Assembly: GCF_022548875.1 (NCBI RefSeq)
Contig: NZ_JAKZEW010000022.1
Coordinates: 300 to 33,616, forward strand
Reading direction: 5' to 3'
DNA: 33,317 nucleotides
Source of the DNA: Glycomyces sp. L485
GTDB lineage: Bacteria > Actinomycetota > Actinomycetes > Mycobacteriales > Micromonosporaceae
A model generated the notes under the pieces. The model made no database searches, was not told where the DNA came from, and was given only the letters and a program-made list of their open reading frames with translations. The position numbers and the translations under genes are program-made. Shown here piece by piece: positions 9,061 through 32,996 of the stretch. The number at the start of each line of letters is the position of its first letter. Position 1 is the stretch's first letter.

Positions 9061-9095
9061 AGGTGTACTGCTACCCGTTCGCGGCTCGACCCCAG

Positions 9096-9109: not shown

Positions 9110-9999
9110 TGAGCGGGACACGGAAACGAGTGGCCGCGGCGGGTGGCGTGCTGTGGCGCACCGTCGAGCGCGGGCGCATCGAGGTGGTCGCCGTCTGGCG
9201 GCCGAAGGTCGGCAACTGGTCGCTGCCCAAGGGCAAGCTCGACGAAGGCGAGCACCCTCTGACGGCGGCATGCCGCGAGGTAGAGGAGGAGACCGGCGTG
9301 CCGGTCATCCCGCAGATGTGGCTGTGCCGTGCGGCCTACGTGCTTCCCAACCCCACCGGCGACGTCCACAAGACCGTCGACTTCTGGTCCATGCGAACCG
9401 AGAAGCCCGACGCGGCGTTCGTCGCCGACGAGGAGATCGGCGAGCGGCGCTGGGTGCCGCTGCCCGAGGCGCGCACCCTGCTCGAACGGCCCAGGGATCA
9501 ACAGGCGCTCAAGGCGTTCTCGGCGCTCCCGGCGATCACCTCGACGATCCTGCTCGTCGCTCCGGCCGAGATCGCGAGGAATTTCGACGGACCCGACGTG
9601 GCCCGGCCGCTGTCGGCGACCGGCCGCGAGCAGGCCGTGCGCCTGGCGGCCCTGGCGGCGCTATACCAGCCGGAGCGGGCTCTGAGCGCGACCGGCAGGG
9701 CGAGCGTGCAGACACTGGAACCGGTGGCGCATGCCGTGCGGTGCCGGTTGAACGGTGACTCGGTGTTCGATTCGGGCTCCCACGGGCGCAATCCGGAGCG
9801 GTCCAGTGCCCGGTTGCGGGAACTGGCGGCCGCGGGCGGCTGCGCGATCGTCTGCGCCGAGGCCGAGGTCATCAGCGACACCGTGGCGATCCTGGCCGAC
9901 GAGGACGATCTCGCGGCGGCCGACGTCTCCACACACGCAGGCGAAGGCTGGGTCCTGTCGCTGGCCGGGCAGCGTCTCATCGGTGTCGAGCGGCTGTGA
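9109..9999 (+). CDS. MutT1-type Nudix hydrolase with degenerate histidine-phosphatase domain
   Basis: MutT1-type proteins hydrolyse oxidised nucleotides and diadenosine polyphosphates. The 296-residue product has an intact Nudix box from G42 to V64 (GKLDEGE, then REVEEETGV). The second half (about 146-296) aligns with the histidine-phosphatase domain of MutT1, as shown by RPLSATGREQA and SATGRASVQTLEP. It has lost the catalytic motif: the usual RH of LVRHA is A151-P152, and the second catalytic His position in the CTH motif falls in C249-A-E251. The Nudix half is probably active and the other half structural or regulatory. In mycobacteria mutT1 likewise lies beside hupB-leuD-leuC. Confidence 0.85.
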   Translation: MSGTRKRVAAAGGVLWRTVERGRIEVVAVWRPKVGNWSLPKGKLDEGEHPLTAACREVEEETGVPVIPQMWLCRAAYVLPNPTGDVHKTVDFWSMRTEKPDAAFVADEEIGERRWVPLPEARTLLERPRDQQALKAFSALPAITSTILLVAPAEIARNFDGPDVARPLSATGREQAVRLAALAALYQPERALSATGRASVQTLEPVAHAVRCRLNGDSVFDSGSHGRNPERSSARLRELAAAGGCAIVCAEAEVISDTVAILADEDDLAAADVSTHAGEGWVLSLAGQRLIGVERL

Positions 10000-10078
10000 C
10001 ACATCCGGGTACGGTTGCGCCTGATTCACGGCTCATGGGCCGTGGATGAGTGGAGCAATCGCATACAAGGAGGCACCC

Positions 10079-11443
10079 GTGCGCAACTCCCCCGACGGAG
10101 CGTCCACCCCCGCGCTCACCAACTGGGCTGGCAACATCGTCTTCGACCCCGAGCGCTTCGAGCCCGTCGCAGACCTCGACCAGGCGCGGGAGGTCGTCGC
10201 CGCGGCCTCGCGTCTGCGGGTGCTCGGCTCGGGCCACTCGTTCAACGCGATCGCCGATTCCAGTGCCGTACTGCTGTCGCTCAGCGGAATCGAGCCCGAA
10301 GTCGACATCGACGCAGAGGCCCGCCGGGTTCGGGCCTCCGGTTGGATCACGTACGCCGCGCTCGGGCAGGCGGTCCACGAGGCCGGGTTCGCACTGCACA
10401 ACTTCGCCTCGCTCCCCCACATCTCGGTGGCCGGGTCGATCGCGACCGGCACGCACGGCTCGGGCGACCGCGTAGGGAACCTCGCGAGCGCCGTGGCCGC
10501 CTTGGAGTTCATCGGCCCCGACGGCGAGAGCCGCACCGTCGAGCGCGGCGACGCCGACTTCCCCGGTTCAGTGGTCCACCTGGGTGCGTTGGGAGTCGTG
10601 ACGGCCGTGACGCTCGACCTCCTGCCGACCTTCGCGATGCGCCAGTACGTTTACGACGGCCTGCCGTTCGACGCGGCGATCGCGCACTTCGACGAGCTGA
10701 CCTCCTCGGCGTACAGCACGAGCATGTTCACGGTCTGGGGCGCCGAGCCGTCGTTCAACTACTGGGTCAAGCAGCGGGTGTCGGACCAGACGCAGCCGTT
10801 CCCGGCCCTGCAGCGGTTCGGGGCGGCGCTGGCAGACGGGCCGCGCCACCCGATCCCGGGCGTCGATCCGGCGGCCTCGACCGAGCAGCAGGGCCGGACC
10901 GGACCGGCGCATGAGCGCCTGCCGCACTTCCGACCCGAGTTCACCCCGAGCGCCGGCGAGGAGCTCCAGTCGGAATACCTGGTAGACCGGGCCGACGCGC
11001 CCGCCGCTCTCGAAGCGTTGCGGGGCCTGTCGGCGAGGCTCGCACCGGTGGTGCAGGTGAGCGAGGTGCGGACGATGGCGGCCGATGAGATGTGGCTGTC
11101 GCCTGCGTACAGAAGGGACACTGTGGGCTTCCACTTCACGTGGATTCGCGACTATGAATCGGTCGAGCCGGTCATGGCATTGGTGGAGCACGCACTCGGC
11201 GCGTTCGGGCCGCGGCCCCATTGGGGCAAATTGTTCACGATTCCCATTACCGAGGTCCGCTCACAATATCCCCGAATGGGTGAGTTCGAAAAACTGCGCG
11301 AGCGCGTCGATCCAGAGGAGAAGTTCGCGAACGACTTCAGCTCGGAACTGCTCGGGGGAATCGCTCGATTACGGGTAGTGCCGGTTCATTCGGTCGGGAG
11401 GGCCTTTTGCGGACATAGCCGAGGGCATTCAGGTGGCTCCTGA
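10079..11443 (+). CDS. Alditol oxidase (covalent FAD, VAO family)
   Basis: Alditol oxidase (AldO/XyoA) oxidises xylitol, sorbitol and related polyols to aldoses with O2, releasing H2O2. The product resembles Streptomyces AldO throughout. Its LGSGHSFN contains the FAD-linking His (H53), followed by NFASLPHISVAGSIATGTHGSG. The C-terminal half has RLPHFRPEFTPS, ELQSEYL, WLSPAYRRDTVGFHFTW and RPHWGKLF. GTG at 10079 has AAGGAGG 5 bases upstream. AldO is about 418 residues; this one is 454 because the frame runs about 25 residues past the usual end and stops inside a terminator hairpin. A frame change near 11350 would end at 11378 instead. Confidence 0.9.
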   Translation: MRNSPDGASTPALTNWAGNIVFDPERFEPVADLDQAREVVAAASRLRVLGSGHSFNAIADSSAVLLSLSGIEPEVDIDAEARRVRASGWITYAALGQAVHEAGFALHNFASLPHISVAGSIATGTHGSGDRVGNLASAVAALEFIGPDGESRTVERGDADFPGSVVHLGALGVVTAVTLDLLPTFAMRQYVYDGLPFDAAIAHFDELTSSAYSTSMFTVWGAEPSFNYWVKQRVSDQTQPFPALQRFGAALADGPRHPIPGVDPAASTEQQGRTGPAHERLPHFRPEFTPSAGEELQSEYLVDRADAPAALEALRGLSARLAPVVQVSEVRTMAADEMWLSPAYRRDTVGFHFTWIRDYESVEPVMALVEHALGAFGPRPHWGKLFTIPITEVRSQYPRMGEFEKLRERVDPEEKFANDFSSELLGGIARLRVVPVHSVGRAFCGHSRGHSGGS

Positions 11444-18401: not shown

Positions 18402-19556
18402 TCATGGCTCCAGATGCGCGATGGTGCCGCCGAGTACGACGGCTTTGACCAGGGGCGTGCCGGGCCGGTAGGCCAGATGCACGTGGGAGGGCGCGGCGAG
18501 GACCACCACGTCGGCGCGGGCGCCGAGTGCGATGCGCCCGATGTCGCCGCGGTGCAGGGCTTTCGACCCTCCGAGGGTGGCGGCGGTGACGGCTTCGGCG
18601 GGGGTCATGCCCATCTCCCGGACGGCGAGGGCGATGCAGAAGGCCATGCTGCTGGTGAAGGAGGAGCCCGGATTGCAGTCGGTGGCGAGCGCGACGGTCG
18701 CCCCGGCTCGGATGAGCCGGCGCGCGTCCGGGTAGGGCGACTTCGTCGAGAACTCGGCGCCTGGCAGGAGGGTCGCGACCGTCTCGCCGCCAGCCAGTGC
18801 CTGGACATCGCTGTCCGACAGGTGGGTGCAGTGGTCGGCCGAGGCCGCCCCGAGTTCCACCGCCAGCTGCACGCCCGGTCCTTCGGTGAGCTGATTGGCG
18901 TGGACGCGCGGCGCGAGCCCGGCTTTGATTCCGGCGGTGAGGACCTCGCGGGCTTGGTCGCCGTCGAAGGCGCCGCGCTCGCAGAACACGTCGACCCATC
19001 TGGCGTGCGGGGCGCAGGCGGTGAGCATCTCGCCGCACACGAGCTCGACGTACGCGTCGGCGTCGGCGGCGGCCGGGACCGTGTGGGCGCCGAGGAAGGT
19101 CGTCTCGGTGGTGAGTTCGCGGGCGATGCGCAGTTGCCGCTCCTCATCGGCGACGGTGAGCCCGTAGCCCGACTTTATCTCCACTGTGGTCGTTCCCTGG
19201 CGGAGCATCTCGGTTGCGAGTCGCGCGCAGGTGGCGCGCAGTTCGTCGTCGCCGGCGCGGCGGGTGGCGGCGACGGTGGTGCGTATGCCGCCGCCGGTAT
19301 AGGACTCGCCGCTCATGCGGGCGGCGAACTCGGCGGCGCGGTCGCCGCCGAAGACGATGTGGGAGTGGCTGTCGACGAACCCGGGGATGACGGCCCCGCC
19401 CGCGGCGTCGAGGCGTTGGTCGGCGACGGGCGCGTCGGCTCTGGCGCCGATCCAGGCGACGGCGCCGCCGTCGACGACGAGGGCGGCGTCGTTGCGGATG
19501 CCGTGTTCTTCGGTGGCGGTGAACAACTCACCGATGTTGTCGATCAAGAGACTCAT
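18402..19556 (-). CDS. hutI: Imidazolonepropionase
   Basis: HutI hydrolyses 4-imidazolone-5-propionate to N-formimino-L-glutamate, the third step. The 384-residue product is an amidohydrolase-fold metalloenzyme with [16 protein letters not shown] (metal-binding HxH), [13 protein letters not shown], and later ATDCNPGSS. It begins at ATG 19556, overlapping the hutF stop as ATGA, with GGAGG 8 bases upstream. The hutH start is one base past its stop. Confidence 0.96.
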
Positions 19557-20848
19557 GCCCACGCCTCCTCGATCGCTTCGGCCAGTTCGGCGGCGGCGTC
19601 GATCGCGGTGTGGCGGCCCTCGGCGACGATGCGGCGGCCGCCGGAGACGACGTCGGTGATGTCGGCGGCGGTGGCGGCGTACAGGATTCCGGAGGGCGCG
19701 CATCCTGCGGTGCGGGGCGTATCGAGCGCGACGGTGACGAGGTCGGCTCGCCGGCCCGGGGCGATGCGTCCGGCGTCGTTCCAGCCGAGGCTGTCGTGGC
19801 CGGTGGCGGCGGCCAACAGTTCGGCGCTCGTGAAGCGGCCGCGCTGGCCGGAGACGAGCCGTTCGTGCATCTCAAGGGCGCGGGCCTCCTCGAACATGTC
19901 GATGACGGCGTTCGCGTCGGTGCCGAGCGACAGCGGTATGCCGGACTCGGCCATGGCGTAGGCCGGGCCGATGCCGTCGGCGAGGTCCCGTTCGGTGGTC
20001 GGGCACAGGCATACGGTCGTCCCGGACCGGCGCAGCAGTTCGAGGTCGTTGTTGGTCGGGTGGGTGGCGTGGACGGCGGTCGTGCCGGGGCCGAGCAGGC
20101 CGCAGTCTTCGAGCAGCTGCGTCGGGCTGCATCCGTGCTCGGCGCGGCATGCCTCGTTCTCGGCGCGCTGCTCGGAGACGTGGACGTGGACTGGCCGGCC
20201 CTCGGTGGATCCGGCGAGGGCCTCGATCGCGGCGTCGGGAACCGCGCGGACCGAGTGGACGGCCGTGCCGGTCAGGCCGAGTGCGCCGGTCGCGATCTTG
20301 TCGACGCGGTTCATCCACGCTTCGAGGCTGCCGTCGCCGAAGCGCCGCTGCGGTCCTTCGAGCGGTTCGCCGAAGCCTCCGGAGAGGTAGAGCGTGTCGA
20401 GCAGTGTGATGCGGATTCCCGCATCGGCCGCGGCGGCGATGAGCGCGTGGCCCATCGCGTTCGGGTCGTCGTACGGGCGGCCGCCCGGGGCGTGGTGAAC
20501 GTAGTGGAACTCCCCCACGCACGTGATCCCGGCGAGGGCCATCTCGGCGTAGACGCCCCTGGCGAGCCGGTAGTACGAGTCGGGGTCGAGGCGTTCGGCC
20601 AGGGCGTACATGCCCTTTCTCCAGTTCCAGAAGTTGCCGCTCTCATCGTGGGTGCGCCCGCGCAGCGCGCGGTGGAAGGCGTGCGAGTGGGCATCGGCCA
20701 GGCCCGGGATGGTCAGGCCCCGCAGGACCGTGCCGCGGCGTGCGGCTCCGGCGGTGACCGAGCGGATGCGGTCCCCGTCGACCTCGACCGCGACCGCCTC
20801 GGCCGGACCCGAATCGAGCCAGGCACGCTCGGCCCAGTAGGTCAGCAC
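19553..20848 (-). CDS. hutF: Formimidoylglutamate deiminase
   Basis: HutF converts N-formimino-L-glutamate to N-formyl-L-glutamate and ammonia, defining the five-step route of histidine degradation. The 431-residue product is an amidohydrolase-superfamily protein with [42 protein letters not shown] and [16 protein letters not shown] chose GTG 20848 because GGGAG lies 6 bases upstream; longer readings run into the previous gene. It overlaps the M20 gene by 7 bases and hutI by 4, so the three are coupled. Confidence 0.94.
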
Positions 20849-22047
20849 GCCAGCTCCCGCAGTACGGCCGCGAGCGCGTCGACGCCGGCGGCGCAGTCTT
20901 CGTCGTCGGCCGTCTCCGAGGGGGCGTGCGAGATGCCGGTGCGGTTGCGCACGAACAGCATCGCGGTCGGCACGTGCGCGGAGACGACGCCCGCGTCGTG
21001 GCCGGCGCCGGTCGGCAGTACCGGGACGCCTCCCAGCAGCGACGCGATCCGGTCGCGCAGCGCGGCGTCGAACTCGACCACGGGCGTCTCGGATTCGGCC
21101 CGCGATCCCACCTGGGTGCCGTCGCGCCCGGCCCGTTCGGACACCTTGGACTCGATTCCTTCGAGTATCGCGTTGAGCACCGCCTCGTCGGGGGCGCGGG
21201 CGTCCAGCCAGGCGTGGACCTTCCCGGCGATCACGTTGGCGGCCCCCGGATCGGACTCGATGCGACCGACCGTGGCGACGCCTCCGGCGAGCCGCGCTTC
21301 CTTGCGGGCGGCGAGGATCATGAACGCCGCGGTCAGCATCGGGTCGGACCGGTCGGGAAGTCGCGTCGTACCCGCGTGGTTGGCCTCGCCGGTGAACGTG
21401 AACCGCCAGCGTCCGTGCGGCCAGATCGCAGTGGCTACGCCGACGGGCGCGTCCTCGGCGTCGAGGGCGCGGCCCTGCTCGATGTGGAGTTCGACGAACA
21501 CGCCGATCTGGCGGAGGCGCTCGGGGTCGGGGCCGAGGACGCTCGGGTCGGCGTTCAAGGAGTCCATGGCCTCGGCGAGCGTGACGCCGTCCGAATCGGT
21601 GAGGTCGCGGGCCCGGTCCGCGTCGAGCGCGCCGGTCATGAGGCGGGTGCCGACGCACGGGACACCGAACCGTCCACCCTCCTCTTCGGAGAACGCGACG
21701 ATGCCGATGGGGTGGCGCCGTTTCGCGCCGCTCGCGCGCAGCTCGTCGACGGCGAGGAACGCCGAGACGATGCCGAGAGGGCCGTCGTAGGCGCCGCCGT
21801 GCGGGACCGAGTCGAAGTGGCTGCCGGTCAGCACCGCGTCACCGGCGTGGCGGTCGCCCCACCAGGCGTAGAGGTTACCGTTCCGGTCGGTCTCGACCTC
21901 CAGGTTCCGTTTCTCGGCCTGGGCTCGGAACCAGTTGCGGCACTCCAGGTCGGTCTCGGTCCATGAGTAGCGCAGATACCCGCCCTCCGGGGACCGCCCG
22001 ATCGGTTCGAAATCGCCCCACAGCTCCCTGAACCCGGCGGCGTCCAT
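20842..22047 (-). CDS. M20-family amidohydrolase (allantoate amidohydrolase-like), candidate formylglutamate deformylase
   Basis: The 401-residue product is an M20 metallohydrolase of the allantoate/N-carbamoyl-amino-acid amidohydrolase type. Metal ligands are visible in GSHFDSVPHGGAYDG, SEEEGGRFG, VELHIEQG, TGAGHDAG and ISHAPSE. GAGGAGGG upstream supports ATG 22047. It lies 18 bases after hutU and overlaps hutF by 7 bases. The pathway needs N-formylglutamate to be cleaved to glutamate and formate, and there is no HutG-type gene here, so this enzyme probably does that. The same arrangement occurs in other actinomycetes. The substrate is inference; the family assignment is firm. Confidence 0.85.
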   Translation of the reverse strand: MDAAGFRELWGDFEPIGRSPEGGYLRYSWTETDLECRNWFRAQAEKRNLEVETDRNGNLYAWWGDRHAGDAVLTGSHFDSVPHGGAYDGPLGIVSAFLAVDELRASGAKRRHPIGIVAFSEEEGGRFGVPCVGTRLMTGALDADRARDLTDSDGVTLAEAMDSLNADPSVLGPDPERLRQIGVFVELHIEQGRALDAEDAPVGVATAIWPHGRWRFTFTGEANHAGTTRLPDRSDPMLTAAFMILAARKEARLAGGVATVGRIESDPGAANVIAGKVHAWLDARAPDEAVLNAILEGIESKVSERAGRDGTQVGSRAESETPVVEFDAALRDRIASLLGGVPVLPTGAGHDAGVVSAHVPTAMLFVRNRTGISHAPSETADDEDCAAGVDALAAVLRELAC

Positions 22048-22065
22048 CGCTTCCCTCCTCGGTGC

Positions 22066-23703
22066 TCACGCTTCTTTGGACGGGATCCTGATCCCGTGGT
22101 CCTCGGCTACCCGATCGGCCGCCTCGTATCCGGCGTCGACGTGGCGGATGACGCCCGTCGCCGGGTCGTTGGACAGGACCCGAGCGAGCTTCTCGGCGGC
22201 GAGCGGTGTGCCGTCGGCGACGCTGACCTGTCCGGCGTGCAGAGACCGCCCCATGCCGACGCCGCCGCCGTGGTGGATGCTCACCCAGCTGGCGCCCGAG
22301 GCGGTGTTGACCATGGCGTTGAGCAGCGGCCAGTCGGCGATCGCGTCGGAGCCGTCCTTCATGGCCTCGGTCTCGCGGTAGGGGCTGGCGACCGAACCGC
22401 AGTCGAGGTGGTCGCGGCCGATGACTACGGGCGCCTTGAGGGTCCCGTCGGCGACCATCTCGTTGAACCGTGCCCCCGCCCGGTCCCTTTCGCCGTGGCC
22501 GAGCCAGCAGATACGGGCCGGCAGGCCCTGGAAGGCGACGCGTTCGCGGGCGAGGGAGATCCAGCGCGCCAGCGACCGGTTCTCGGGGAACAGGTCGAGC
22601 ACCGCCTCGTCGGTGCGGGCGATGTCGGCGGGGTCGCCCGAGAGCGCGGCCCACCGGAAGGGGCCCTTGCCCTCGCAGAACAGGGGCCGGATGTAGGCGG
22701 GGACGAATCCGGGGAAGGCGAAGGCGCGTTCGAAGCCGCCGGCGAGGGCCTCGCCGCGGATCGAGTTGCCGTAGTCGAAGACCTCGACGCCGGCGTCGAG
22801 GAAGCCGACCATGGCCTCGACATGCTTGGCCATCGAAGCGCGGGCGCCTTCGGTGAACGAGTCGGGGTTCTCTCGGGCGAGCGCGGGCGCGTCGCGGTAG
22901 TCGATTCCCTCGGGGATGTAGGCGAGCGGGTCGTGCGCAGAGGTCTGGTCGGTGACGATGTCGACCTCGACGTCGCGGGCGAGGAACTCGGGGACGAGCG
23001 TGGCGGCGTTGCCGACCAGGCCGATCGAGGCCGCCTCGCCGGCACGCTTCGCGGCCAGCGCCGTTTTTATCGCTTGATCGATATCCTCGGCGATCGTGTC
23101 GAGGTAGCGCTGCTCGACTCTGCGACGCAGCTTGTCGGGGTCGACGTCGATGATGAGGCAGACGCCGTCGTTCATGGTGACGGCGAGCGGTTGGGCCCCG
23201 CCCATCCCGCCGCAGCCGGCCGTGAGCGTCAGCGTGCCCCGCAGGGACCCCCCGAAGCGCTTCGCGGCGACCGCGGCGAACGTCTCGTAGGTGCCCTGAA
23301 GGATCCCCTGGGTGCCGATGTAGATCCACGAACCGGCCGTCATCTGGCCGTACATGGTCAGCCCGGCCGCTTCGAGACGCCGGAACTCGGGCCAGTCGGC
23401 CCAGTCGCCGACGAGGTTCGAGTTCGCCAGCAGCACGCGCGGCGCCCACTCGTGGGTGCGCATGACGCCGACCGCGCGGCCGGACTGGACGAGCATCGTC
23501 TCATCCGCCTCGAGGGTCCCGAGCGTCCGCAGGATCGTCTCCAGGTCGTCGCGGCTCCGCGCGGCCTTCCCGGTGCCGCCGTAGACGACAAGGTCGTCGG
23601 GCCTCTCGGCCACCTCCGGGTCGAGGTTGTTCTGAAGCATCCGCCAGGCCGCCTCGGCCTGCCAGTTCTTGCAGTGCAGGCTTGTGCCGTGTGGTGCGCG
23701 CAT
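22066..23703 (-). CDS. hutU: Urocanate hydratase
   Basis: HutU uses tightly bound NAD+ to hydrate urocanate to imidazolone propionate, the second step. The 545-residue product begins [20 protein letters not shown] and includes [31 protein letters not shown], and the catalytic-cysteine motif [17 protein letters not shown], then [17 protein letters not shown]. The ATG at 23703 has an AAGGCGG run upstream. It is the first gene of the hut operon; the 90-base gap after hppD would have to hold the operon promoter, which I could not identify clearly. Confidence 0.97.
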
Positions 23704-23774: not shown

Positions 23775-25109
<1,335 letters not shown>

Positions 25110-25613
25110 ATGACCAGCGATTCACCGATCGACGCGCTCGACGCCCGACTCATCGCCCTGCTGGAGGACGAACCTCGCATCGGGGTCCTCGAATGCTCGC
25201 GCCGACTCGGCGTCGCGCGCGGAACGGTGCAGGCGCGCATGGACAAGCTCGCCGCACGCGGCGTCATCCGCGGTTTCGGGCCGCGCCTCGACCCGGCGGC
25301 GCTGGGCTATCCGGTGATGGCGTTCGTGACCTTGGAGCTGCGCCAGGCCATCGGCCACGACGCGGTCGCCAGGGAGCTCACGGGCGTGCCCGAGGTGCTG
25401 GAGGCGCATACGGTCTCGGGGACCGGCGACCTGCTGTGCCGGATCGTCGCACGCACGAACGCCGAGCTCCAGGGCGTGATCGATAGGGTCTTGGCGTGCG
25501 AGGGCGTGATGCGGGCGTCCACGGTGATCGCCCTGGCCGAGCAGATACCTCACCGGACGCTCCCGCTGGTGGCGGAGGCGGCGGACCTCCAGTCAAAATC
25601 CTATAGGATATAG
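25110..25613 (+). CDS. Lrp/AsnC-family transcriptional regulator
   Basis: The 167-residue product has an N-terminal HTH (DALDARLIALLEDEPRIGVLE, then CSRRLGVARGTVQARMDKLAARGVI) and a C-terminal RAM-type ligand domain (LGYPVMAFVTLELRQ, EVLEAHTVSGTGDLLCRIVART). It is divergent from hppD and convergent with fahA, which makes it the likely regulator of tyrosine catabolism, perhaps sensing an aromatic amino acid or an intermediate. I chose ATG 25110 because the -10 element sits 7 bases upstream; GTG 25092 in the same frame would lie upstream of that element. Its last four codons form part of a terminator stem. Confidence 0.9.
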   Translation: MTSDSPIDALDARLIALLEDEPRIGVLECSRRLGVARGTVQARMDKLAARGVIRGFGPRLDPAALGYPVMAFVTLELRQAIGHDAVARELTGVPEVLEAHTVSGTGDLLCRIVARTNAELQGVIDRVLACEGVMRASTVIALAEQIPHRTLPLVAEAADLQSKSYRI

Positions 25614-25630
25614 GAAATATTCTATAGGAT
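25598..25630. terminator. AT-rich bidirectional terminator containing two stop codons
   Basis: ATCCTATAGGATAT (25598-25611) pairs with 25617-25630 over 14 positions, with one G-T wobble, around the loop AGGAA. The first nine bases also overlap a perfect 12-base palindrome. The Lrp TAG (25611-25613) begins in the left arm and the fahA TAG (complement of 25622-25624) is in the right arm. Only 8 bases separate the two coding regions. Confidence 0.7.
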
Positions 25631-26824
25631 CGAGCCGGTGACCTCTCCCAGGCCGACTACCTCGCCGTTCGCGCCCGGTGCGGTGGCGGTGATCGTGACG
25701 GTGTCGCCGTCTTCGAGGAACGTGTGGGCCGCGCCGTCACCGAGTTCGAGCGGCTCGGTCCCTCCCCAGGTGAGTTCCTGGAAGCTCCCCCACTGGCGCT
25801 TCTCCGGGCCCGAGACGGTGCCGGAGGCGAACAGGTCGCCGGTTCGCAGGCCGGCGCCGTTCACGGTCATGTGCGCGAGCTGCTGGGCGGGCGTCCAGTA
25901 CATCCCGGCGAACGGCGGCTTGGACAGCTCGATGCCGTTGAGCGACACCGACATCGTAATGTCGTAGGAGAACCGCTCGGATTCCTTCAGGTACTCCAGC
26001 GGTGCCGGGTCCTGCTCCGGCGCGGCGGTCTTGGCCCAGGCCAGTGCCTCCAGCGGCGTCACCCAATGACTGATCGAGGTCGCGAACGACTTGCCGAGGA
26101 ACGGGCCGAGCGGCTGGTACTCCCAGGCCTGGATGTCGCGAGCCGACCAGTCGTTGACCAGGACCGCCCCGAAGACGTGGTCGGCGAAGTCGTCCGGACC
26201 GACCGCGGTCCCCAGCTCCGTCGGGACGCCGACGACGAAACCGATCTCGGCCTCGATGTCGAGCCTGCGGCTCGGGCCGACCTCGATCTCGCCGTCCGCC
26301 CTCTTGTACTGCCCTGCGGGCCTGGTGATCGGCGTTCCGGAGGCGACGACCGTCCCCGCCCGCCCGTGGTAGCCGACCGGCAGCCGCTTCCAGTTGGGCA
26401 GCAGCGGTTCACTGCCTGGCCTGAACATCTTCCCGAGATTGGAGGCGTGGTGCTCCGAGGCGTAGAAGTCGACGAAGTCGGCGACGGCGAACGGCAGGTG
26501 CATCCGCACCTTGTCGACCGGGACGAGCAGGTGCCGATACCGGTCGCGGTAGACGTCGTCGATGAGCAGCTCGATGAGCTGGAGGCGCACCGTCCGCCAC
26601 GCCGGCGGGCCGGCGGCCATGAACTCGCCCAGGTCGGGAGCGTGGAACACGGGGCGGATCCACGGCAGGAAGAACGGCCCGGCCGCCAGGCCCCGCAGGT
26701 CCAGCACGAAGTCGCCGATGCGGACGCCGAGTCGCGGATGCGGGTCCTTCCTGGTCGAGAAGACCCCGTAGGGCAGATGGTGTACGCCGTACGGGCTGCC
26801 GCCCGCGCCTTCGACCCAGCTCAC
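25622..26824 (-). CDS. fahA: Fumarylacetoacetase
   Basis: FahA hydrolyses fumarylacetoacetate to fumarate and acetoacetate, the last step of the homogentisate pathway. The 400-residue product has YGVFSTRKDPHPRLGVRIGD near the start, FVDFYASEHHASNLGKMFRP with the metal Asp and catalytic His, LDIEAEIGFVVGVP, VLVNDWSARDIQAWEYQPLGPF, and SGTVSGPEKRQWGSF. GTG 26824 overlaps the stop of the upstream gene as GTGA, so translation of the two is coupled. Length is close to the usual 400-420. Confidence 0.95.
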   Translation of the reverse strand: MSWVEGAGGSPYGVHHLPYGVFSTRKDPHPRLGVRIGDFVLDLRGLAAGPFFLPWIRPVFHAPDLGEFMAAGPPAWRTVRLQLIELLIDDVYRDRYRHLLVPVDKVRMHLPFAVADFVDFYASEHHASNLGKMFRPGSEPLLPNWKRLPVGYHGRAGTVVASGTPITRPAGQYKRADGEIEVGPSRRLDIEAEIGFVVGVPTELGTAVGPDDFADHVFGAVLVNDWSARDIQAWEYQPLGPFLGKSFATSISHWVTPLEALAWAKTAAPEQDPAPLEYLKESERFSYDITMSVSLNGIELSKPPFAGMYWTPAQQLAHMTVNGAGLRTGDLFASGTVSGPEKRQWGSFQELTWGGTEPLELGDGAAHTFLEDGDTVTITATAPGANGEVVGLGEVTGSIL

Positions 26825-27618
26825 GATTCGGTCCCGCCTCTCGTCACCAGCGACAGTGCCGTCAGTTCCTGCAGCGGTTCGATGATGCTGCACGAACCGA
26901 AGCCGACCCACAGCGGCCTCGGCACGTCGCGGATCGCGCGGACCCGGTGCACGATGTGCTCGGTGTCGGTGGAGGCCAGGAGTTCGGCGACCTCGGCGAC
27001 CGGCGCCCCGGCCGAGGCCTCGGCGGAGGCGGCGAGCACGTTGAGGAAGCCGTGGTGGACGAAGCCGGTCTCGGGGTCGCGGTGCCGGATCGCGCGGTGC
27101 AGCCCGGCGGTGAGTTTGAACCGCAGGCCCCGCTCGGCGCAACCGACGATGACCTCGGCCAGGGTCCGCGGCGACGGGAAGAACTCCTCGAAAAGCCCGC
27201 CGGTGCGGAACTTCGGTGTGAACCCGGTCCCGACGACGGCGTCGAGGCCCTCCTCGCCGAACGGGAGTTCGGCATAGATCGGCGCACCCCAGCCCACGGC
27301 GGCCTTCTCCAGGTGGTGGAGGGCCGCACGGGACTCGTACTGGACGACCGCGATCGACTCGTCGAGAGCGCCGACCAGCTCGGACACCTGCTCGGGCTCG
27401 ACGTCGACGATGACGCCTATACGCAGGGCGGTGCGGCTCGGCGCGAGGTCGTGCAGCCGGCTGGCCGGGATCAGGAGGGCACCGACCATGGTCGCGTACC
27501 AGGACTGGCGGTGTCCCCGGTGGGCCGGGACGGCCTCCTCCAGCGGCGCGTTGCCGGGCGGGAAGACCGCCGCGTCGTCGATCAGGTCCCGCAGCACCGC
27601 GGGTATGGCACCAGACAT
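26821..27618 (-). CDS. Uncharacterised protein coupled to fumarylacetoacetase
   Basis: I cannot assign a known function. The 265-residue product has short motifs that look conserved: LIDDAAVFPPG (12-22), KFRTGG (136-141), FKLTAGLHRAIRH (167-179), HGFLNVL (189-195) and FGSCSIIEP (240-248). Alternating hydrophobic strands such as RIGVIVDV, IYAELPF and RFKLTAG suggest a TIM-barrel-like fold, with Lys136 and Lys168 at strand ends. It shares a promoter with fahA, overlaps it by 4 bases, and is divergent from hmgA. The missing maleylacetoacetate isomerase step is one possible role. ATG 27618 lies 6 bases after a -10 element. Confidence 0.75.
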   Translation of the reverse strand: MSGAIPAVLRDLIDDAAVFPPGNAPLEEAVPAHRGHRQSWYATMVGALLIPASRLHDLAPSRTALRIGVIVDVEPEQVSELVGALDESIAVVQYESRAALHHLEKAAVGWGAPIYAELPFGEEGLDAVVGTGFTPKFRTGGLFEEFFPSPRTLAEVIVGCAERGLRFKLTAGLHRAIRHRDPETGFVHHGFLNVLAASAEASAGAPVAEVAELLASTDTEHIVHRVRAIRDVPRPLWVGFGSCSIIEPLQELTALSLVTRGGTES

Positions 27619-27685
27619 GCCCTGAGGATACGGCCGCGGCGCGGAGTTGTCGATACGGAACGGAGTGAACGCTATTCTCAGGGCA
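27618..27685. promoter_or_regulatory. Divergent tyrosine-catabolic promoters flanked by an inverted repeat
   Basis: For the fahA operon, TCGACA (minus, 27653-27648) and TATCCT (27630-27625) are 17 bases apart, 6 bases before the ATG. On the plus side TATTCT (27673-27678) is the likely -10 of hmgA. Both -10 elements continue with CTCAGGGCA: TATCCTCAGGGCA on minus (27630-27618) and TATTCTCAGGGCA on plus (27673-27685). The two copies match at 12 of 13 positions and form an inverted repeat around the shared region. Confidence 0.6.
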
Positions 27686-27743: not shown

Positions 27744-28928
27744 GTGCCGTTCTATCGTTCCGTCGGGCGGATCCCCGACAAACGACACACGCAGTTCCGC
27801 CAAAGCGACGGGAGCCTGTACTCCGAGGAGCTCATGGGCCAGGAGGGCTTCTCCTCGGACTCCTCGCTGCTGTACCACCGGTTCAGACCGACCGCGATCA
27901 GCTCCAGCACCGAGTACCGGCCCGAGAAGGCCGAGCCGGTGCCGAACCACCCGCTCAAACCGAGGCACCTGCGCACCCACAAGCTCAACGGGGCGGGCGA
28001 CGCGATCCTCGGACGCGACCACTTGCTCTCGAACGCGGACTGCCGGATCTCCTACGCCGTCTCGAACAAGCCGTCCCCCCTGTACCGCAACGCCATCGGC
28101 GATGAATGCATCTACGTCGAGGACGGCTCGGCGCACGTCGAGACCTCGTTCGGGGCGCTCGACATCGCCCAGGGCGACTACCTGATCGTCCCGATGTCGA
28201 CGATCTACCGGATCGTCCCCACCGGCGACGACCCGCTCCGCACGCTCGTGGTCGAGTCCTCGGGCCACATCACGCCGCCGAAGCGCTACCTGTCGGTGCG
28301 GGGCCAGTTCCTGGAGCACTCCCCGTACTGCGAGAGGGACCTGCGCAGCCCGTCCGAACCGCTGTTGGCGGACGGCGAGAACGTCGACGTCTACGTCCAG
28401 CATCGGGGCCGCGGGTCGTCGACCGTCTGGACGAAGTTCACCTACGCCCACCACCCGTTCGACGTCGTCGGCTGGGACGGGTGCCTGTACCCGTGGGTGT
28501 TCTCCGTCCACGACTTCGAGCCGATCACCGGGCGCATCCACCAGCCGCCGCCCGCGCACCAGGTCTTCCAGGGGCCGAACTTCGTGATCTGCAACTTCGT
28601 GCCGCGCAAGGTGGATTACCACCCGGACGCGATCCCCGTCCCGTACAACCACCACAACGTCGACTCCGACGAGGTGATGTTCTACTGCGGAGGGAACTAC
28701 GAGGCCAGGCGCGGCTCGGGCATCGAGCAGGGCTCGATCTCGCTGCACCCGTCGGGCTTCACGCACGGCCCGCAGCCGGGCGCCCCCGAGCGCAGCATCG
28801 GCGCCGACTACTTCGACGAACTGGCGGTCATGGTCGACACGTTCCGCCCGCTCGAACTGTGCGAAGCGGCCCTGGACTGCGAGGACACCGACTACGCCTG
28901 GACCTGGAACCGCGATCCCGACATGTAG
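27744..28928 (+). CDS. hmgA: Homogentisate 1,2-dioxygenase
   Basis: HmgA opens the aromatic ring of homogentisate with O2 to give maleylacetoacetate. The 394-residue product has a cupin fold with the iron-ligand region PYNHHNVDSDEVMFYCGGNYEARRG (His and Glu) and HPSGFTHGPQPGAPE (second His). Earlier it has AIGDECIYVEDGSAHVET and GDYLIVPMSTIYRI. GTG 27744 is preceded by AAAGGAG at 7 bases. Divergent from the fahA operon, it completes hppD-hmgA-fahA in this island. It is somewhat shorter than proteobacterial homologues (about 430), as is usual in actinobacteria. Confidence 0.95.
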   Translation: MPFYRSVGRIPDKRHTQFRQSDGSLYSEELMGQEGFSSDSSLLYHRFRPTAISSSTEYRPEKAEPVPNHPLKPRHLRTHKLNGAGDAILGRDHLLSNADCRISYAVSNKPSPLYRNAIGDECIYVEDGSAHVETSFGALDIAQGDYLIVPMSTIYRIVPTGDDPLRTLVVESSGHITPPKRYLSVRGQFLEHSPYCERDLRSPSEPLLADGENVDVYVQHRGRGSSTVWTKFTYAHHPFDVVGWDGCLYPWVFSVHDFEPITGRIHQPPPAHQVFQGPNFVICNFVPRKVDYHPDAIPVPYNHHNVDSDEVMFYCGGNYEARRGSGIEQGSISLHPSGFTHGPQPGAPERSIGADYFDELAVMVDTFRPLELCEAALDCEDTDYAWTWNRDPDM

Positions 28929-29287: not shown

Positions 29288-29805
29288 CGGCGCGGTCCGC
29301 CCGCCTCGTAGTCGAGACGCTTCCGTGAACGCATGAGGCGGCGGCCGGTGTCGGACCCGCCGCCTATGGCGAAAAGCCGGCGTTTCGAAGACCGGTCCAA
29401 CCGGCTGGAATCCCGTCGCTTCGGCGACCGGAGGGTTCGCCTGCTGCCAATCCTCATGGCTTCGCCGGGGGGGTGTTCCTCGTTTCCTGGGTCGCCGCCG
29501 CGGCGGTTCCGCTCGCTCGGCATGCTCGGCATAGGGGAATCCTTCGCAGTCGGGGGACATCGTCCGCCGCCACATACACGCATGCGCCCTTCAAGACCAA
29601 CATCGCGCCGGACCTCGACCACCCGGCGTCCGCCGGGAGACCTCACTCAGCGGCAAGAAGTGGCGATCGAACGGCTCCGCCAGGGCGACATCGCCTACCG
29701 GCCAGTAAGCCGCGGTCGCGGTGCAATGCGGCCGGCCCCGTCCACGTCCTTGATGACAGGGGCCGTCGTCGCGACCGCGCCGGGCCCCCGGAGGAGGAGA
29801 GTCCG
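29288..29805. other. Hairpin-rich spacer without a recognisable gene
   Basis: This 518-base gap separates the TfoX-N gene from the OsmC-family gene. A 9-bp stem, AGGCGGCGG (29336-29344) with CCGCCGCCT (29357-29365), probably ends the hmgA-TfoX transcript. It is followed by further inverted repeats: CCGGT-CCA-ACCGG near 29390-29405 and GTCGC-TTCG-GCGAC (29415-29428), the latter with a stable TTCG tetraloop. Frames are open on both strands, but none has a clear ribosome binding site or family pattern. It could hold a structured RNA, a dispersed repeat or decayed coding sequence. Confidence 0.4.
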
Positions 29806-30369
29806 ATGACCACCACAGCGATACGCAACGGCATCAACGTCGAGCAGCTGCTGCAGACCATCGATGCCGTCAAGGACGACGAGGCCGTCGGGACGTTCAC
29901 GTTCCGGGCCTCCAGCAACTGGAAGGAAGGCACCTACAACCAAGGTGAAATCGGCGACTTCACGCACGCCGGACAAGAGGACACCAGCCGCGGCGCCCCG
30001 TTCCGAACGCACGGTGACGAACCGCCCGTCCTGCTGGGATCCAACCGCGGACCCAACGCGGTCGAGCTCGTGCTGCAGGCGCTGGGCTTCTGCTACGCAG
30101 TCGGATACGTGGCCAACGCCGCCGCACGGGGCATCGACATCGAGCAGATGGAGTACGAGGTCGAAGGCGACCTCGACGTGCACCGCTTCCTCGGCCTCGA
30201 CGGCGAGCGGGCCGGATTCACCGAGATCAGGGTCAAGGGCACGGTCAAGAGCCCGAACGCGACCCGAGAGCAGCTGACCGAACTGTGCCGGTACGTGCAG
30301 GACACCTCGCCGGTTCGCGACATCATCGCCAACCCGGTCCCGGTGAAGACGTCCTTGCAGGTCATCTGA
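29806..30369 (+). CDS. OsmC-family protein
   Basis: OsmC-family proteins are thiol peroxidases or related stress proteins. The 187-residue product has the core GSNRGPNAVELVLQALGFCYAVGYVANAAARGID with one Cys in the helix, the EGDLDVHRFLGLDGERAGFTEIRV sheet segment, and the C-terminal ELCRYVQDTSPVRDIIANPVPV. In the classical second motif CPV the Cys is Ser (TSPV), and another Cys lies 9 residues earlier, so peroxidase chemistry is not assured. A GGAGGAGGAGA run supports ATG 29806. It leads the sigma factor/methyltransferase cluster, 46 bases before the sigma gene. Confidence 0.88.
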   Translation: MTTTAIRNGINVEQLLQTIDAVKDDEAVGTFTFRASSNWKEGTYNQGEIGDFTHAGQEDTSRGAPFRTHGDEPPVLLGSNRGPNAVELVLQALGFCYAVGYVANAAARGIDIEQMEYEVEGDLDVHRFLGLDGERAGFTEIRVKGTVKSPNATREQLTELCRYVQDTSPVRDIIANPVPVKTSLQVI

Positions 30370-30415
30370 GCTACGGGAGCCTCGGCACGGGCTAGCATCG
30401 GAAACGGGGGATCGG

Positions 30416-31033
30416 ATGCTGGGAACAATCGATCGAACATCACTCCAGGAACTCGCCCGTGCCGAGCTCCCAGGCCTTTACGCCCTCGCCCGCTATCTGA
30501 CGCACACCCCGTCCGCAGCGGAGGAACTGGTGCAGGACACCATGGTGCGGGCCTGCCGCTCCTTCGCCTCGCTGAAGGACGTCGAAGCGGGCCCGAAATG
30601 GCTCCGGGTCATCATGACGAACGTGTGGCGCGACCAGCTGCGACGGGACGGGCGCCGACCCGAAGAGGTCCTGGTCGACCCTTCCCCCGAGCCGGGACGT
30701 TTCTCGCTGTACCAGACACTCGCCGACGAGGACCCCCTGCCGTGGTCGGACACCCTGCACGTGGACTTCCTCGGCGCCTTCTCCGCCGAGGACATCCACC
30801 TCGTTCTGGAGCGGGTTCCCGAGCGCTACCGCGTGCCCCTGCTGCTGCGATACATGGACGGCTTCGACACGGGTGAGATATGCGAGCTGCTGAGCCTGCC
30901 ACCGGGGACGGTCTACTCGCTCCTCCACCGCGGGAGACGGCACTTCGAACGAACGCTTTGGGAGTACGCGAACGAATCCGGACTCCTCGAACAGGCGGCC
31001 GGCGCCGAGCGCCCACCGCGGAAGGAGGCCTGA
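30416..31033 (+). CDS. ECF-type RNA polymerase sigma factor
   Basis: The 205-residue product has sigma region 2 at about 14-80 (LYALARYLTHTPSAAEELVQD, then TMVRACRSFASL and KWLRVIMTNVWRDQLRRDGRRP). Region 4 is at about 135-190 (VLERVPERYRVPLLLRYMDGF, EICELLSLPPGTVYSLLHRGRRHFE). No region 1.1 or 3 is present, as expected for an extracytoplasmic-function factor. A GGGGGAT lies just before the ATG, and TAGCAT (30393-30398) could be a -10. The anti-sigma gene follows after 5 bases. It likely controls the surrounding cluster; the signal is unknown. Confidence 0.9.
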   Translation: MLGTIDRTSLQELARAELPGLYALARYLTHTPSAAEELVQDTMVRACRSFASLKDVEAGPKWLRVIMTNVWRDQLRRDGRRPEEVLVDPSPEPGRFSLYQTLADEDPLPWSDTLHVDFLGAFSAEDIHLVLERVPERYRVPLLLRYMDGFDTGEICELLSLPPGTVYSLLHRGRRHFERTLWEYANESGLLEQAAGAERPPRKEA

Positions 31034-31038
31034 TCGCG

Positions 31039-31284
31039 ATGATTCGCTGCCGCGAAGTCGTCGAACGGCTATGGACCTACCTCGACGGAGATCTCGAGGA
31101 GGCCGACCGCCTCGCCATCGAGGAACACCTGCGGCTGTGCGTGCGCTGCTGCGGCGAGACCGCGTTCGCGAAAGAGATTCGTAACACCTTGGCCACCCGA
31201 AGCCGACCCAAGATGCCCGACGACGTGCAGAGACTTCTGGAGCAATTCATCGAAGGACTCGACGCACCGAAACCGAACACTTAG
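31039..31284 (+). CDS. Zinc-binding anti-sigma factor (zf-HC2 type)
   Basis: The 81-residue product matches the short soluble ZAS anti-sigma type. MIRCREVVERLWTYLDGDLE is followed by the HX3CX2C motif EEHLRLCVRCC (H30, C34, C37), with an additional C4 and C38. There is no membrane segment, so it would sense a cytoplasmic signal such as thiol oxidation or an electrophile, with release of zinc freeing the sigma factor. That mechanism is known for RsrA-like proteins and is inferred here. GGAGG lies 10 bases before the ATG, overlapping the end of the sigma gene. Confidence 0.88.
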   Translation: MIRCREVVERLWTYLDGDLEEADRLAIEEHLRLCVRCCGETAFAKEIRNTLATRSRPKMPDDVQRLLEQFIEGLDAPKPNT

Positions 31285-31312
31285 CTCCGTCGAATGCAAG
31301 GGAGGAGACGTC

Positions 31313-32113
31313 GTGACCAGGGACCTAATGTTCCAGAGCGAAATCCGCAATGTCGTCCGATCGACCTACGGCCGACTGCCCGGCGGTGCCGGCCGGGCCA
31401 TGGCAGAGCGGCTGTACAGCGAAGAGCAACTGGCGGGCCTCCCCGACGACGCGATCGACTGGTCGCTGGGCGTCGGCAACCCTGTCGCGCACGCCGCCCT
31501 GCGACCGGGCGAGCGGATCGTCGACCTCGGCTGCGGCGGAGGCATCGACTCGATCCTTGCCGCCCGAGAGGTGGGGCCGACCGGAACGGTAACTGGGGTG
31601 GACACGCTCACCGAGATGTGCGAGCGCACCCGGCAGGCCGCGGGGACCGCCGGTGTCGCCGAATGGTGCGACGCGGTCCAAGGCGAGCTGGAGGATCTCC
31701 CGCTACCCGACGACAGCGCGGACGCGGTCGTCTCGAACGGCGTGGTAAACCTGTCGCCGCGCAAGAGCCGGGCGCTGGCCGAAGCCGCCCGGGTGCTGCG
31801 CGGCGGCGGCCGGCTCTGCATCGCCGACTTCGTCGTCAACGACGATCTGCCCCCGGAAGTCCTGACCTCAAGCGCCGCGTGGGCCGGCTGCATCGCAGGC
31901 GCACTGTCGGAAGAAGTCCTGGTCAAGAAGCTCATGAAGGCCGGGTTCACTGAGATCGAGCTGGGCGAGCGGATACCGTTCGGCATCGACGACGTCGCCG
32001 TCTACCCCCTGTTCGACGACGCCGTGATCCAGCTGATGAAGCGCGTCGTGCCCGAGCCTGAGCAACGGCGGATCGCCACCAGCGTCATCGCGAAGGCCGT
32101 CCGTGCCGGCTGA
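31313..32113 (+). CDS. ArsM-like SAM-dependent methyltransferase, two arsenic-binding Cys missing
   Basis: The 266-residue product has the class I methyltransferase motif VDLGCGGGIDSILAA (about 70-84) and closely follows bacterial arsenite methyltransferases: YSEEQLAGLPDDAIDWSLG, SNGVVNLSPRKSRALAEAARVLRGGGRL, AGCIAGAL. The three cysteines that hold As(III) in ArsM would be at GCGNP, SNCV and GCIAGAL. Here the first is Val54, the second Gly143, and only C193 remains. Arsenite methylation is therefore unlikely; another soft or thiol substrate is possible. GTG 31313 has GGGAGGAG upstream. It follows the anti-sigma gene by 28 bases. Confidence 0.87.
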   Translation: MTRDLMFQSEIRNVVRSTYGRLPGGAGRAMAERLYSEEQLAGLPDDAIDWSLGVGNPVAHAALRPGERIVDLGCGGGIDSILAAREVGPTGTVTGVDTLTEMCERTRQAAGTAGVAEWCDAVQGELEDLPLPDDSADAVVSNGVVNLSPRKSRALAEAARVLRGGGRLCIADFVVNDDLPPEVLTSSAAWAGCIAGALSEEVLVKKLMKAGFTEIELGERIPFGIDDVAVYPLFDDAVIQLMKRVVPEPEQRRIATSVIAKAVRAG

Positions 32114-32210
32114 CCGCCGAGTCGGCGCGTCCCGAACGCAATGGAGCGCGCGCCGAGATCGTCCTCAACTGTGTCCCGGATTCCGGGGCGACGGATGAAG
32201 GAGGACCATC

Positions 32211-32996
32211 ATGACGAACACAACGACGAGCCTGCCCGTCGATCCCAAAGCGCTGCGGGTGTCCGTGCGAGAGAAGTACCGCGAGGTCGCGCGGCACCCG
32301 GACGGCCACTTCCACTTCCACTCCGGGCGGCCCTTGGCCGCGCTGCTGGGCTACGACCGGTCTCTGGTGGACGCACTTCCCGACCGCGCCGTAGAGTCGT
32401 TCGCGGGAGTGGCAAACCCGTTCGGGTTCCACCCGCTCGGCCAGGACGACCGGCTGGTCGACATCGGCAGCGGCAGCGGGTTCGACGCGTTCGTCGCCGC
32501 GCGACTGGTCGGGCCCGGAGGCAGCGTGGTCGGGGTGGACATGACGCCCGAGATGCTGGCCAAGGCACGTGAGACATCGGCCCTGCTCGGCCTCGACAAC
32601 GTGGAGTTCCGCGAAGGCATCGCCGAGGACCTGCCGATCGAGGACGGCTGGGCTGACGTGGTCGTCTCCAACGGCGTGCTCAACCTGGTCGCCGAGAAGC
32701 ACGCGGTGTTCACCGAGATCTTCCGGGTGCTTCACCCTGGCGGGCGACTGCAGTTCGCCGACATCGCGGTTGGCCGGCAGGTCCCGCCGGAGGCGACATG
32801 CAACATCGACCTGTGGACCGACTGCATCGCCGGTGGACTGTCCCGGCAGGAGTGGCAGTCGATGATCGAAGACGCGGGCTTCATCGACGTCAAGGTCGGG
32901 CCGGGCGTGGACGTCTTCGCCGGAGCCGCCGGGGAACGCAACGCGCGCCGCTACGACGTGCTCGCGCACGTCTTCTATGCGCGCAAACCGCAGTGA
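32211..32996 (+). CDS. Second ArsM-like methyltransferase with His-rich N-terminus
   Basis: The 261-residue product has the SAM motif VDIGSGSGFDAFVAA (about 83-97) and again resembles ArsM. SFAGVANP stands where GCGNP would be (V67), SNGVLNL where SNCVINL would be (G155), and DCIAGGL keeps one cysteine (C205). A His-rich segment, HPDGHFHFHSGRP (H29, H33, H35, H37), precedes the core and could bind metal. AAGGAGG supports ATG 32211. It lies 97 bases after the first methyltransferase, which it resembles in architecture; the two may act in series or as a heterodimer. Substrate unknown. Confidence 0.86.
   Translation: MTNTTTSLPVDPKALRVSVREKYREVARHPDGHFHFHSGRPLAALLGYDRSLVDALPDRAVESFAGVANPFGFHPLGQDDRLVDIGSGSGFDAFVAARLVGPGGSVVGVDMTPEMLAKARETSALLGLDNVEFREGIAEDLPIEDGWADVVVSNGVLNLVAEKHAVFTEIFRVLHPGGRLQFADIAVGRQVPPEATCNIDLWTDCIAGGLSRQEWQSMIEDAGFIDVKVGPGVDVFAGAAGERNARRYDVLAHVFYARKPQ

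What the first reader, a model, noticed from the sequence alone, without database searches (positions are those of the whole stretch)
26821..27618. Uncharacterised gene coupled to fahA where a maleylacetoacetate isomerase is missing
The island encodes HppD, HmgA and FahA but no recognisable GST-zeta or other maleylacetoacetate isomerase. Actinobacteria lack glutathione in general, so a different isomerase or a by-pass is required. The unknown 265-residue protein shares a promoter and a GTGA overlap with fahA and has ordered motifs (DDAAVFPPG, KFRTGG, FKLTAGLHRAIRH, FGSCSIIEP) suggestive of a TIM-barrel enzyme with lysines at strand ends.
Basis: partly seen in the sequence, partly recalled or inferred. 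Interest (0 to 1): 0.75.

Follow-up and report, generated by a model that had tools for sequence, protein, structure and literature searches.

The report
Likely missing tyrosine-breakdown isomerase family
A large family of bacterial proteins without a family name is encoded, in most genomes examined, directly in front of the last gene of tyrosine breakdown, and it is the best candidate for a step that these bacteria were thought to lack: the glutathione-free conversion of maleylacetoacetate to fumarylacetoacetate.

Summary
Window 26821-27618 (-) encodes a 265-aa protein ("X") that overlaps fahA by GTGA. X has no Pfam, NCBIfam or PDB sequence match, but belongs to a large family in Actinomycetota, Bacillota and Cyanobacteriota. 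fahA lies directly downstream of X in 73 of 80 named loci, 14 of 15 full-length cases among 296 genomes of the phylum, and 24 of 24 plasmid records. In 6 of the 7 other named loci fahA is elsewhere in the genome. The GST-zeta isomerase (TIGR01262) reaches its cut-off in 0 of the 296 genomes; the window's genome also lacks a GshB match and has MshC (mycothiol). Two AlphaFold models (pLDDT 93, 92) give a TIM barrel nearest to deoxyribose-phosphate aldolase, with near-invariant lysines on strands 6 and 7 and a near-invariant cysteine after strand 8. X most likely is a glutathione-independent maleylacetoacetate isomerase using Lys136 (iminium) and Cys243 (Michael addition); this activity is inferred, not shown. 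Against exclusivity: 19 of 34 FahA genomes in the sample lack X, and in three genomes the only X found, beside fahA, lacks Cys243. This would be a new enzyme family for a known reaction.

The parts
26821..27618 (-). X: 265-aa protein of the unnamed family, proposed glutathione-independent maleylacetoacetate isomerase
   Evidence: translation; no significant Pfam/NCBIfam/PDB match; family
26821..26824 (-). GTGA overlap: stop of X and GTG start of fahA
   Evidence: one search prints GAATCGTGAGCTGG
25622..26824 (-). fahA, fumarylacetoacetase
   Evidence: TIGR01266 438.6 bits
27744..28928 (+). hmgA-like gene, short-type homogentisate 1,2-dioxygenase, divergent from X
   Evidence: PF04209 and PF20510 above cut-off; TIGR01015 only 55 bits of 510.75
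23794..25101 (-). hppD, 4-hydroxyphenylpyruvate dioxygenase (mechanical ORF; an ATG at 24999 is a more likely start, by reading)
   Evidence: TIGR01263 413.4 bits
25092..25613 (+). AsnC/Lrp-type regulator between hppD and fahA
   Evidence: PF01037 6e-15
27625..27653 (-). sigma-70-like promoter TCGACA-17-TATCCT; six bases lie between the -10 and the ATG of X, so the transcript may be leaderless
   Evidence: 1 found, 0.1 expected; -10 conserved in 7 Glycomyces loci; function not tested
27211..27213 (-). codon of Lys136 on strand 6 (proposed Schiff-base lysine)
   Evidence: K in 343 of 345 sequences; strand
27115..27117 (-). codon of Lys168 on strand 7
   Evidence: K in 342 of 345 sequences; strand
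26890..26892 (-). codon of Cys243 just after strand 8 (proposed nucleophile)
   Evidence: C in 337 of 345 sequences; position

Best explanation
X is an enzyme of the homogentisate pathway that converts maleylacetoacetate (the HmgA product) to fumarylacetoacetate (the FahA substrate) without glutathione: a non-homologous replacement of GST-zeta MaiA. SHOWN by computation: linkage to fahA in three phyla; no maiA above cut-off in the phylum sample; a predicted TIM barrel of the class-I-aldolase (DERA) type; near-invariant residues mostly on the strands or in the loops after them, with Lys136 on strand 6, Lys168 on strand 7 and Cys243 after strand 8. [quoted passage not shown] The iminium makes C2 a strong Michael acceptor. 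The Cys243 thiol, with His174 as partner, adds there; the C2-C3 bond, now single, rotates; the thiol leaves and hydrolysis releases the trans product. In effect the enzyme carries the thiol that glutathione supplies in MaiA. Arg138, Arg178, His189 and Arg234 may bind the carboxylates.
For: Pathway membership: fahA directly downstream on the same strand in 73 of 80 loci of named genomes, estimated median gap -4 bases, 72 of 73 within 150 bases; one search of 296 genomes finds X in 16, 15 of them full-length, and all 15 have FahA (34 of 296 overall), 14 adjacent and one with the genes on different contigs; the 16th is a fragment at a contig end without FahA found (hypergeometric for 15 of 16: 4e-15, kinship not corrected); 24 of 24 plasmid records, including Priestia (Bacillota) and Kovacikia (Cyanobacteriota). 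Gap: TIGR01262 over cut-off in 0 of 296; own genome without TIGR01380 match, with MshC. R. ruber Chol-4 grows on homogentisate while the legend of its cluster names hmgA and hmgB but no isomerase (PMC6498646, passages); R. ruber NBRC 15591 has hmgA-X-fahA (L121). Structure. Conservation; spacing of Lys136 and residue 168 is 32 in 343 of 343. Chemistry precedent in the same fold: E. coli DERA Lys167 forms a Schiff base with crotonaldehyde and Cys47 adds to its beta carbon (PMC6244999, passages).
Against: 19 of 34 FahA genomes of the sample have no X, 8 of them of one genus (g8); so X is not the only solution in the phylum. The own genome has 7 MDMPI_N proteins over cut-off, any of which could be a mycothiol-dependent isomerase. 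Cys243 is missing in 8 of 345 sequences; three of these (L077, L088, L091) are the only X found in their genomes and sit beside fahA and hmgA, so either those copies have lost or changed function or Cys243 is not essential. Two members beside fahA (G057, G258) have lost Lys136 as well. In 4 genomes of the exception set fahA has no X next to it (L164, L165, L168, L169). R. ruber Chol-4 did not grow on L-tyrosine. Profile comparison with DERA is not significant (probability 0.1%) and Foldseek gave X no match at E 0.001, so DERA-like chemistry rests on the predicted fold alone. No activity has been measured.
Confidence: 0.62

Rival explanations
1. X acts in the same pathway but on another reaction: a lysine-dependent class I aldolase, decarboxylase or repair enzyme that removes an off-path product of maleyl- or fumarylacetoacetate, while isomerisation is spontaneous, thiol-catalysed or done by another enzyme.
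For: The nearest folds are aldolases. FahA occurs without X in 19 of 34 FahA genomes, and hmgA-fahA without X between or beside them is seen in L165, L168, L169, L209. Isomerisation can be catalysed by small thiols (recalled).
Against: X is coupled to the FahA gene in most loci and lies between hmgA and fahA, on one strand in 25 and with hmgA divergent in 47 of 80 loci. maiA sits in the same cluster in 3 of 6 Pseudomonadota plasmid regions looked at, where X was not found.
Confidence: 0.15
2. X is a maleylacetoacetate hydrolase that cleaves the cis compound directly to maleate and acetoacetate, as reported biochemically for some Bacillus strains.
For: PMC4457819 cites Crawford 1976 for such an activity in Bacillus, with no gene identified in B. 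anthracis (passages; Crawford itself not read). X occurs in Bacillota.
Against: X is paired with FahA in nearly all genomes examined, which would then be superfluous, and no gene named for maleate was seen in the seven annotated plasmid regions. FahA itself is the more likely hydrolase.
Confidence: 0.08
3. X is a maleylacetoacetate isomerase that uses the cell's own low-molecular-weight thiol (mycothiol, bacillithiol) as cofactor instead of Cys243.
For: The own genome has MshC. Natural variants without Cys243/His174 remain beside fahA (L077, L088, L091).
Against: One family serves phyla with different main thiols (thiols recalled; phyla), which is easier if no diffusible thiol is needed. C243 is kept in 337 of 345 and goes together with H174. 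The predicted fold is not a thiol-transferase fold (thiol-transferase folds recalled).
Confidence: 0.1
4. X is a non-catalytic partner of FahA (subunit, chaperone or scaffold).
For: Tight coupling, estimated median gap -4 bases.
Against: Thirteen polar or charged positions are conserved in at least 97% of 345 sequences; 11 of them lie on strands or in the loops after strands 7 and 8, as in an active site. X is unlinked to fahA in some genomes.
Confidence: 0.05

Closest known systems
Maleylacetoacetate isomerase MaiA / GST zeta (TIGR01262)
   Same: Same gene cluster and proposed reaction; both proposed to use a thiol Michael addition (MaiA mechanism recalled)
   Different: No sequence match; TIM barrel instead of the GST fold; no glutathione; the thiol is proposed to be a protein cysteine
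Deoxyribose-5-phosphate aldolase (DERA) and the class I aldolase TIM barrels
   Different: Under 20% identity in the listed rows; hhalign probability 0.1%; no Pfam/NCBIfam DERA match; different pathway
Mycothiol-dependent maleylpyruvate isomerase (MDMPI)
   Same: Solves the analogous cis-trans problem of the gentisate pathway in Actinomycetota without glutathione (stated for Rhodococcus in PMC6498646, passages)
   Different: DinB-like four-helix-bundle fold (recalled for MDMPI; DinB fold described in PMC10950700, passages), thiol cofactor; PF11716 not among the matches of X
Maleate isomerase (Asp/Glu racemase superfamily), recalled only
   Same: Cofactor-free cis-trans isomerisation by an enzyme cysteine
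   Different: Another fold; not tested here

Membership tests
Maleylacetoacetate isomerase MaiA / GST zeta (TIGR01262) | sequence match to the family model | tested here: not met
   NCBIfam scan of X lists no TIGR01262 even at E 1
Maleylacetoacetate isomerase MaiA / GST zeta (TIGR01262) | gene linked to hmgA/fahA | tested here: met
   fahA directly downstream in 73 of 80 loci
Maleylacetoacetate isomerase MaiA / GST zeta (TIGR01262) | isomerase activity on maleylacetoacetate | not testable with these tools
   needs enzyme assay
DERA / class I aldolase (TIGR00126, PF01791) | TIM-barrel fold nearest to DERA | tested here: met
DERA / class I aldolase (TIGR00126, PF01791) | catalytic lysines on strands 6 and 7 | tested here: inconclusive
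   K136 and K168 (and their equivalents in the Priestia member) are on the 6th and 7th of eight strands, but that DERA Lys167/Lys201 lie on strands 6/7 is recalled and no residue-level superposition was available
DERA / class I aldolase (TIGR00126, PF01791) | sequence-family membership | tested here: not met
   no such Pfam/NCBIfam match; hhalign against 10 DERAs probability 0.1%
Mycothiol-dependent maleylpyruvate isomerase (PF11716) | MDMPI_N domain | tested here: not met
   not in the Pfam scan of X at E 1

The most novel reading that the evidence does not exclude
X founds a new class of cofactor-free cis-trans isomerase: a class-I-aldolase barrel in which a Schiff-base lysine and a built-in cysteine do together what glutathione does in GST-zeta, turning the Lys-enal-Cys adduct that inactivates DERA into a catalytic cycle. 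It closes tyrosine catabolism in glutathione-poor bacteria of at least two phyla and occurs in a third, and its repeated loss of the Cys/His pair (with a second, intact X-fahA pair in two Actinoplanes genomes) marks the catalytic residues.
Probability: 0.45. Interest if true: 0.85.

Novelty: new variant of a known kind. Interest (0 to 1): 0.76.

Why it matters
Tyrosine and phenylalanine catabolism is textbook biochemistry, yet in bacteria without glutathione one step often has no known gene; two papers on Bacillus species say so (PMC4457819, PMC6193087, passages), though the operons they describe do not contain X. A family with thousands of sequence clusters, labelled hypothetical protein nearly everywhere it was listed, sits in exactly that gap in many Actinomycetota, in Priestia and in a cyanobacterium. 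If the role holds, one enzyme assay would name the family, correct metabolic models, and show a second way to isomerise a cis-enedione, with a lysine/cysteine pair instead of a diffusible thiol.

Tried and rejected
Known-family searches of X or of family sets: Pfam, NCBIfam, PADLOC and PDB sequences gave nothing significant. Weak names (T4_deiodinase E 0.29, TPP_ScyA E 0.032 and, for single members of the set, a few at E 0.01-0.06) are far under their cut-offs or unsupported and were rejected. Three UniProt labels (HpcH/HpaI aldolase twice, Transaldolase once) look automatic and were not used.

Sequence homology to DERA: profile comparison not significant; kept as a fold resemblance only. Foldseek for the window's model gave no match at E 0.001; for the Priestia model its 17 matches at that level were mixed TIM barrels with low TM-scores. 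The DERA ranking comes from VIA-align.

X as the only actinobacterial solution: rejected, 19 of 34 FahA genomes lack it. Cys243 as strictly essential: not established (8 of 345 lack it). X as always linked: rejected for 7 of 80; of these L069 lies near a contig end with no fahA found in that assembly, the other six have fahA elsewhere, and two of the six carry a second X beside it. Among the 73, three fahA genes are incomplete: L089 and L117 end with the contig, L078 is in three collinear pieces.

Looked for an existing description of a glutathione-independent maleylacetoacetate isomerase or of this family in the paper library: none seen in the listings. The library holds open-licence PubMed Central papers only, and I saw listings and passages, no whole paper.

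Rfam scan of the window: no match. The upstream alignment was not informative beyond Glycomyces.

Full report
WHAT IS THERE. Window 26821-27618 (-) is an open frame of 265 codons, called X below. Its stop overlaps the GTG start of fahA (25622-26824, -) in the bases GTGA. Downstream lies hppD (23794-25101, -) beyond an AsnC-type regulator (25092-25613, +); upstream, divergently, lies an HmgA-like gene (27744-28928, +). FahA and HppD pass their NCBIfam equivalog cut-offs; the HmgA-like protein has both HgmA Pfam domains but scores only 55 bits against TIGR01015, so it is of a short, divergent type. A gene of similar size (1,173 bp) is functional as hmgA in Bacillus thuringiensis (PMC6193087, passages; sequences not compared here). 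The nearest relatives of X that carry an organism name are from Glycomyces.

X IS UNNAMED BUT NOT RARE. Neither Pfam, NCBIfam nor the PDB has a significant sequence match for X, nor for a set of 30 diverse members (Pfam, NCBIfam), nor for a profile of 11 members (PDB). Yet 2738 of 7996, 3259 of 7997 and 7896 of 8000 scored candidates match in three successively wider searches; each search scored only its top 8000 or so candidates, so these are lower bounds. In the 120 rows listed by each search, names given by sources were nearly all 'hypothetical protein' (three UniProt labels differ) and the precomputed Pfam column was empty. Named members come from Actinomycetota, Bacillota (Priestia, Paenibacillus, Brevibacillus, Aneurinibacillus tyrosinisolvens and others), one Eremiobacteraeota bin and Cyanobacteriota (Kovacikia).

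GENE NEIGHBOURHOOD. Three samples were examined. (a) The best 80 of 554 confirmed loci in named species genomes (all 80 kept are Actinomycetota by title): fahA lies directly downstream on the same strand in 73 of 80; the estimated gap has median -4 bases, and 72 of 73 lie within 150 bases. hmgA is upstream on the same strand in 25, divergent in 47 and not found in 8. In three of the 73 fahA is incomplete (L089 and L117 at contig ends, L078 in three collinear pieces). Of the 7 exceptions, L069 lies near a contig end and its assembly has no fahA found; the other six genomes have fahA elsewhere, four over the family cut-off and two below it, two of them with a second X beside it (L166, L167). (b) 296 genomes drawn evenly from the phylum: a first search found X in 15; a wider profile over all 296 finds 16, of which one (G269) is a fragment at a contig end without FahA. 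All 15 full-length cases are among the 34 with FahA; in 14 the two genes are adjacent, and in G279 they lie on different contigs. Chance of 15 of 16 is 4e-15 without correcting for kinship. Only 8 candidates per genome were scored, so further distant members may be missed. (c) 72,556 plasmid records: X in 24. 23 of these are among the 60 listed of 114 FahA records, with adjacent coordinates, and the 24th (Kovacikia) has X 8001-8897 and fahA 8894-10201 with hppD and hmgA beside them. Priestia carries hppD-X-fahA-hisC-hmgA, Tsukamurella tyrosinosolvens hppD-hmgA-X-fahA. Of the other 37 listed FahA records, 36 are Pseudomonadota by genus name and one is Nocardia farcinica, with hmgA-fahA and no X. 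In 6 Pseudomonadota records looked at, 3 have maiA within 4 kb and none has X in the stretch. In one X plasmid (L200) an MDMPI_N-type protein lies about 4 kb from X.

THE GAP. TIGR01262 (MaiA) has no match in the own genome at E 10 (98.7% complete, 151 contigs) and none above cut-off in the 296 genomes; 37 have weak matches, among them one X genome, G121. The own genome has no TIGR01380 glutathione synthetase match, has MshC of mycothiol synthesis (600.8 bits, cut-off 485.1), and 7 MDMPI_N proteins over cut-off, so a mycothiol-dependent isomerase elsewhere cannot be excluded. Literature seen as passages: in Bacillus anthracis and B. thuringiensis the authors could not identify an isomerase gene (PMC4457819, PMC6193087), but the operon described there is hppD-fahA-hmgA without X, and I did not search those genomes for X elsewhere. 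Rhodococcus ruber Chol-4 grows on homogentisate (not on L-tyrosine), while the figure legend for its cluster names hmgA and hmgB and no isomerase; the text speaks of hmgABC in general (PMC6498646). R. ruber NBRC 15591 has hmgA-X-fahA (L121).

CONSERVATION AND NATURAL VARIANTS. In 345 sequences (105 from loci, 240 from the lists; the rows P0121-P0226 first listed were left out): R138 345, E117 344, K136 343, D14 343 (2 gaps), E95 343, R178 343, K168 342, H189 339, H174 338, C243 337. C243 is absent in 8; seven of these also lack H174, so the two go together. On a quick tree of 96 rows the loss of C243 needs at least 4 changes (3 forced by well-supported branches); the five Actinoplanes-type losses form one clade (support 99), and the second X of two of those genomes branches elsewhere. 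This fits replacement of a decayed copy by an acquired intact one. Against that reading, L077, L088 and L091 have only the variant X found, still beside fahA and hmgA. G057 and G258, also beside fahA, have lost K136 too, which looks like decay.

MECHANISM. Maleylacetoacetate has a ketone conjugated to the cis double bond. A lysine iminium on that ketone would make the far alkene carbon accept a thiol; the resulting single bond can rotate, and elimination gives the trans isomer. Precedent in the same fold: in DERA crotonaldehyde is bound as a Schiff base and Cys47 adds to its beta carbon, which inactivates DERA (PMC6244999, passages). In X the same chemistry would be made reversible. Steps shown: linkage, gap, predicted fold, residue positions. 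Steps inferred: substrate, Schiff base, cysteine attack, isomer released.

VERDICT. That X belongs to the homogentisate pathway I hold about 95% likely; that it is the maleylacetoacetate isomerase about 62%. It is not the only answer in Actinomycetota, since 19 of 34 FahA genomes in the sample lack it (14 of the 29 whose FahA passes its cut-off), 8 of them of one genus.

Noticed in passing
window 19553-23703 (-): hutF, an allantoate-amidohydrolase-like M20 peptidase and hutU lie next to the tyrosine genes (NCBIfam): histidine and tyrosine breakdown share one island.
   Followed up: no
window 27618-27653 (-): Six bases lie between the promoter-like -10 and the ATG of X, and the -10 is conserved in seven Glycomyces loci, so the X-fahA transcript may be leaderless.
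   Followed up: partly
L093, L102 (Actinoplanes italicus, A. regularis) with L166, L167: These genomes hold an X without Cys243/His174, away from fahA, plus a second intact X beside fahA from another branch of the tree.
   Followed up: partly
G000:C7:26924-27880: A second, shorter FahA-like match in the window's genome (231.7 bits, below the TIGR01266 cut-off).
   Followed up: no
window about 29779-32996 (+): By reading only: an OsmC-like protein, an ECF-type sigma factor, a zinc-finger anti-sigma-like protein and two similar methyltransferases in a row.
   Followed up: no
window 27744-28928 (+) and relatives: The HmgA beside X is a short type that scores far below the NCBI hmgA cut-off (55 of 510.75 bits); plasmid records label its relatives as homogentisate dioxygenase or as cupin protein.
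   Followed up: no
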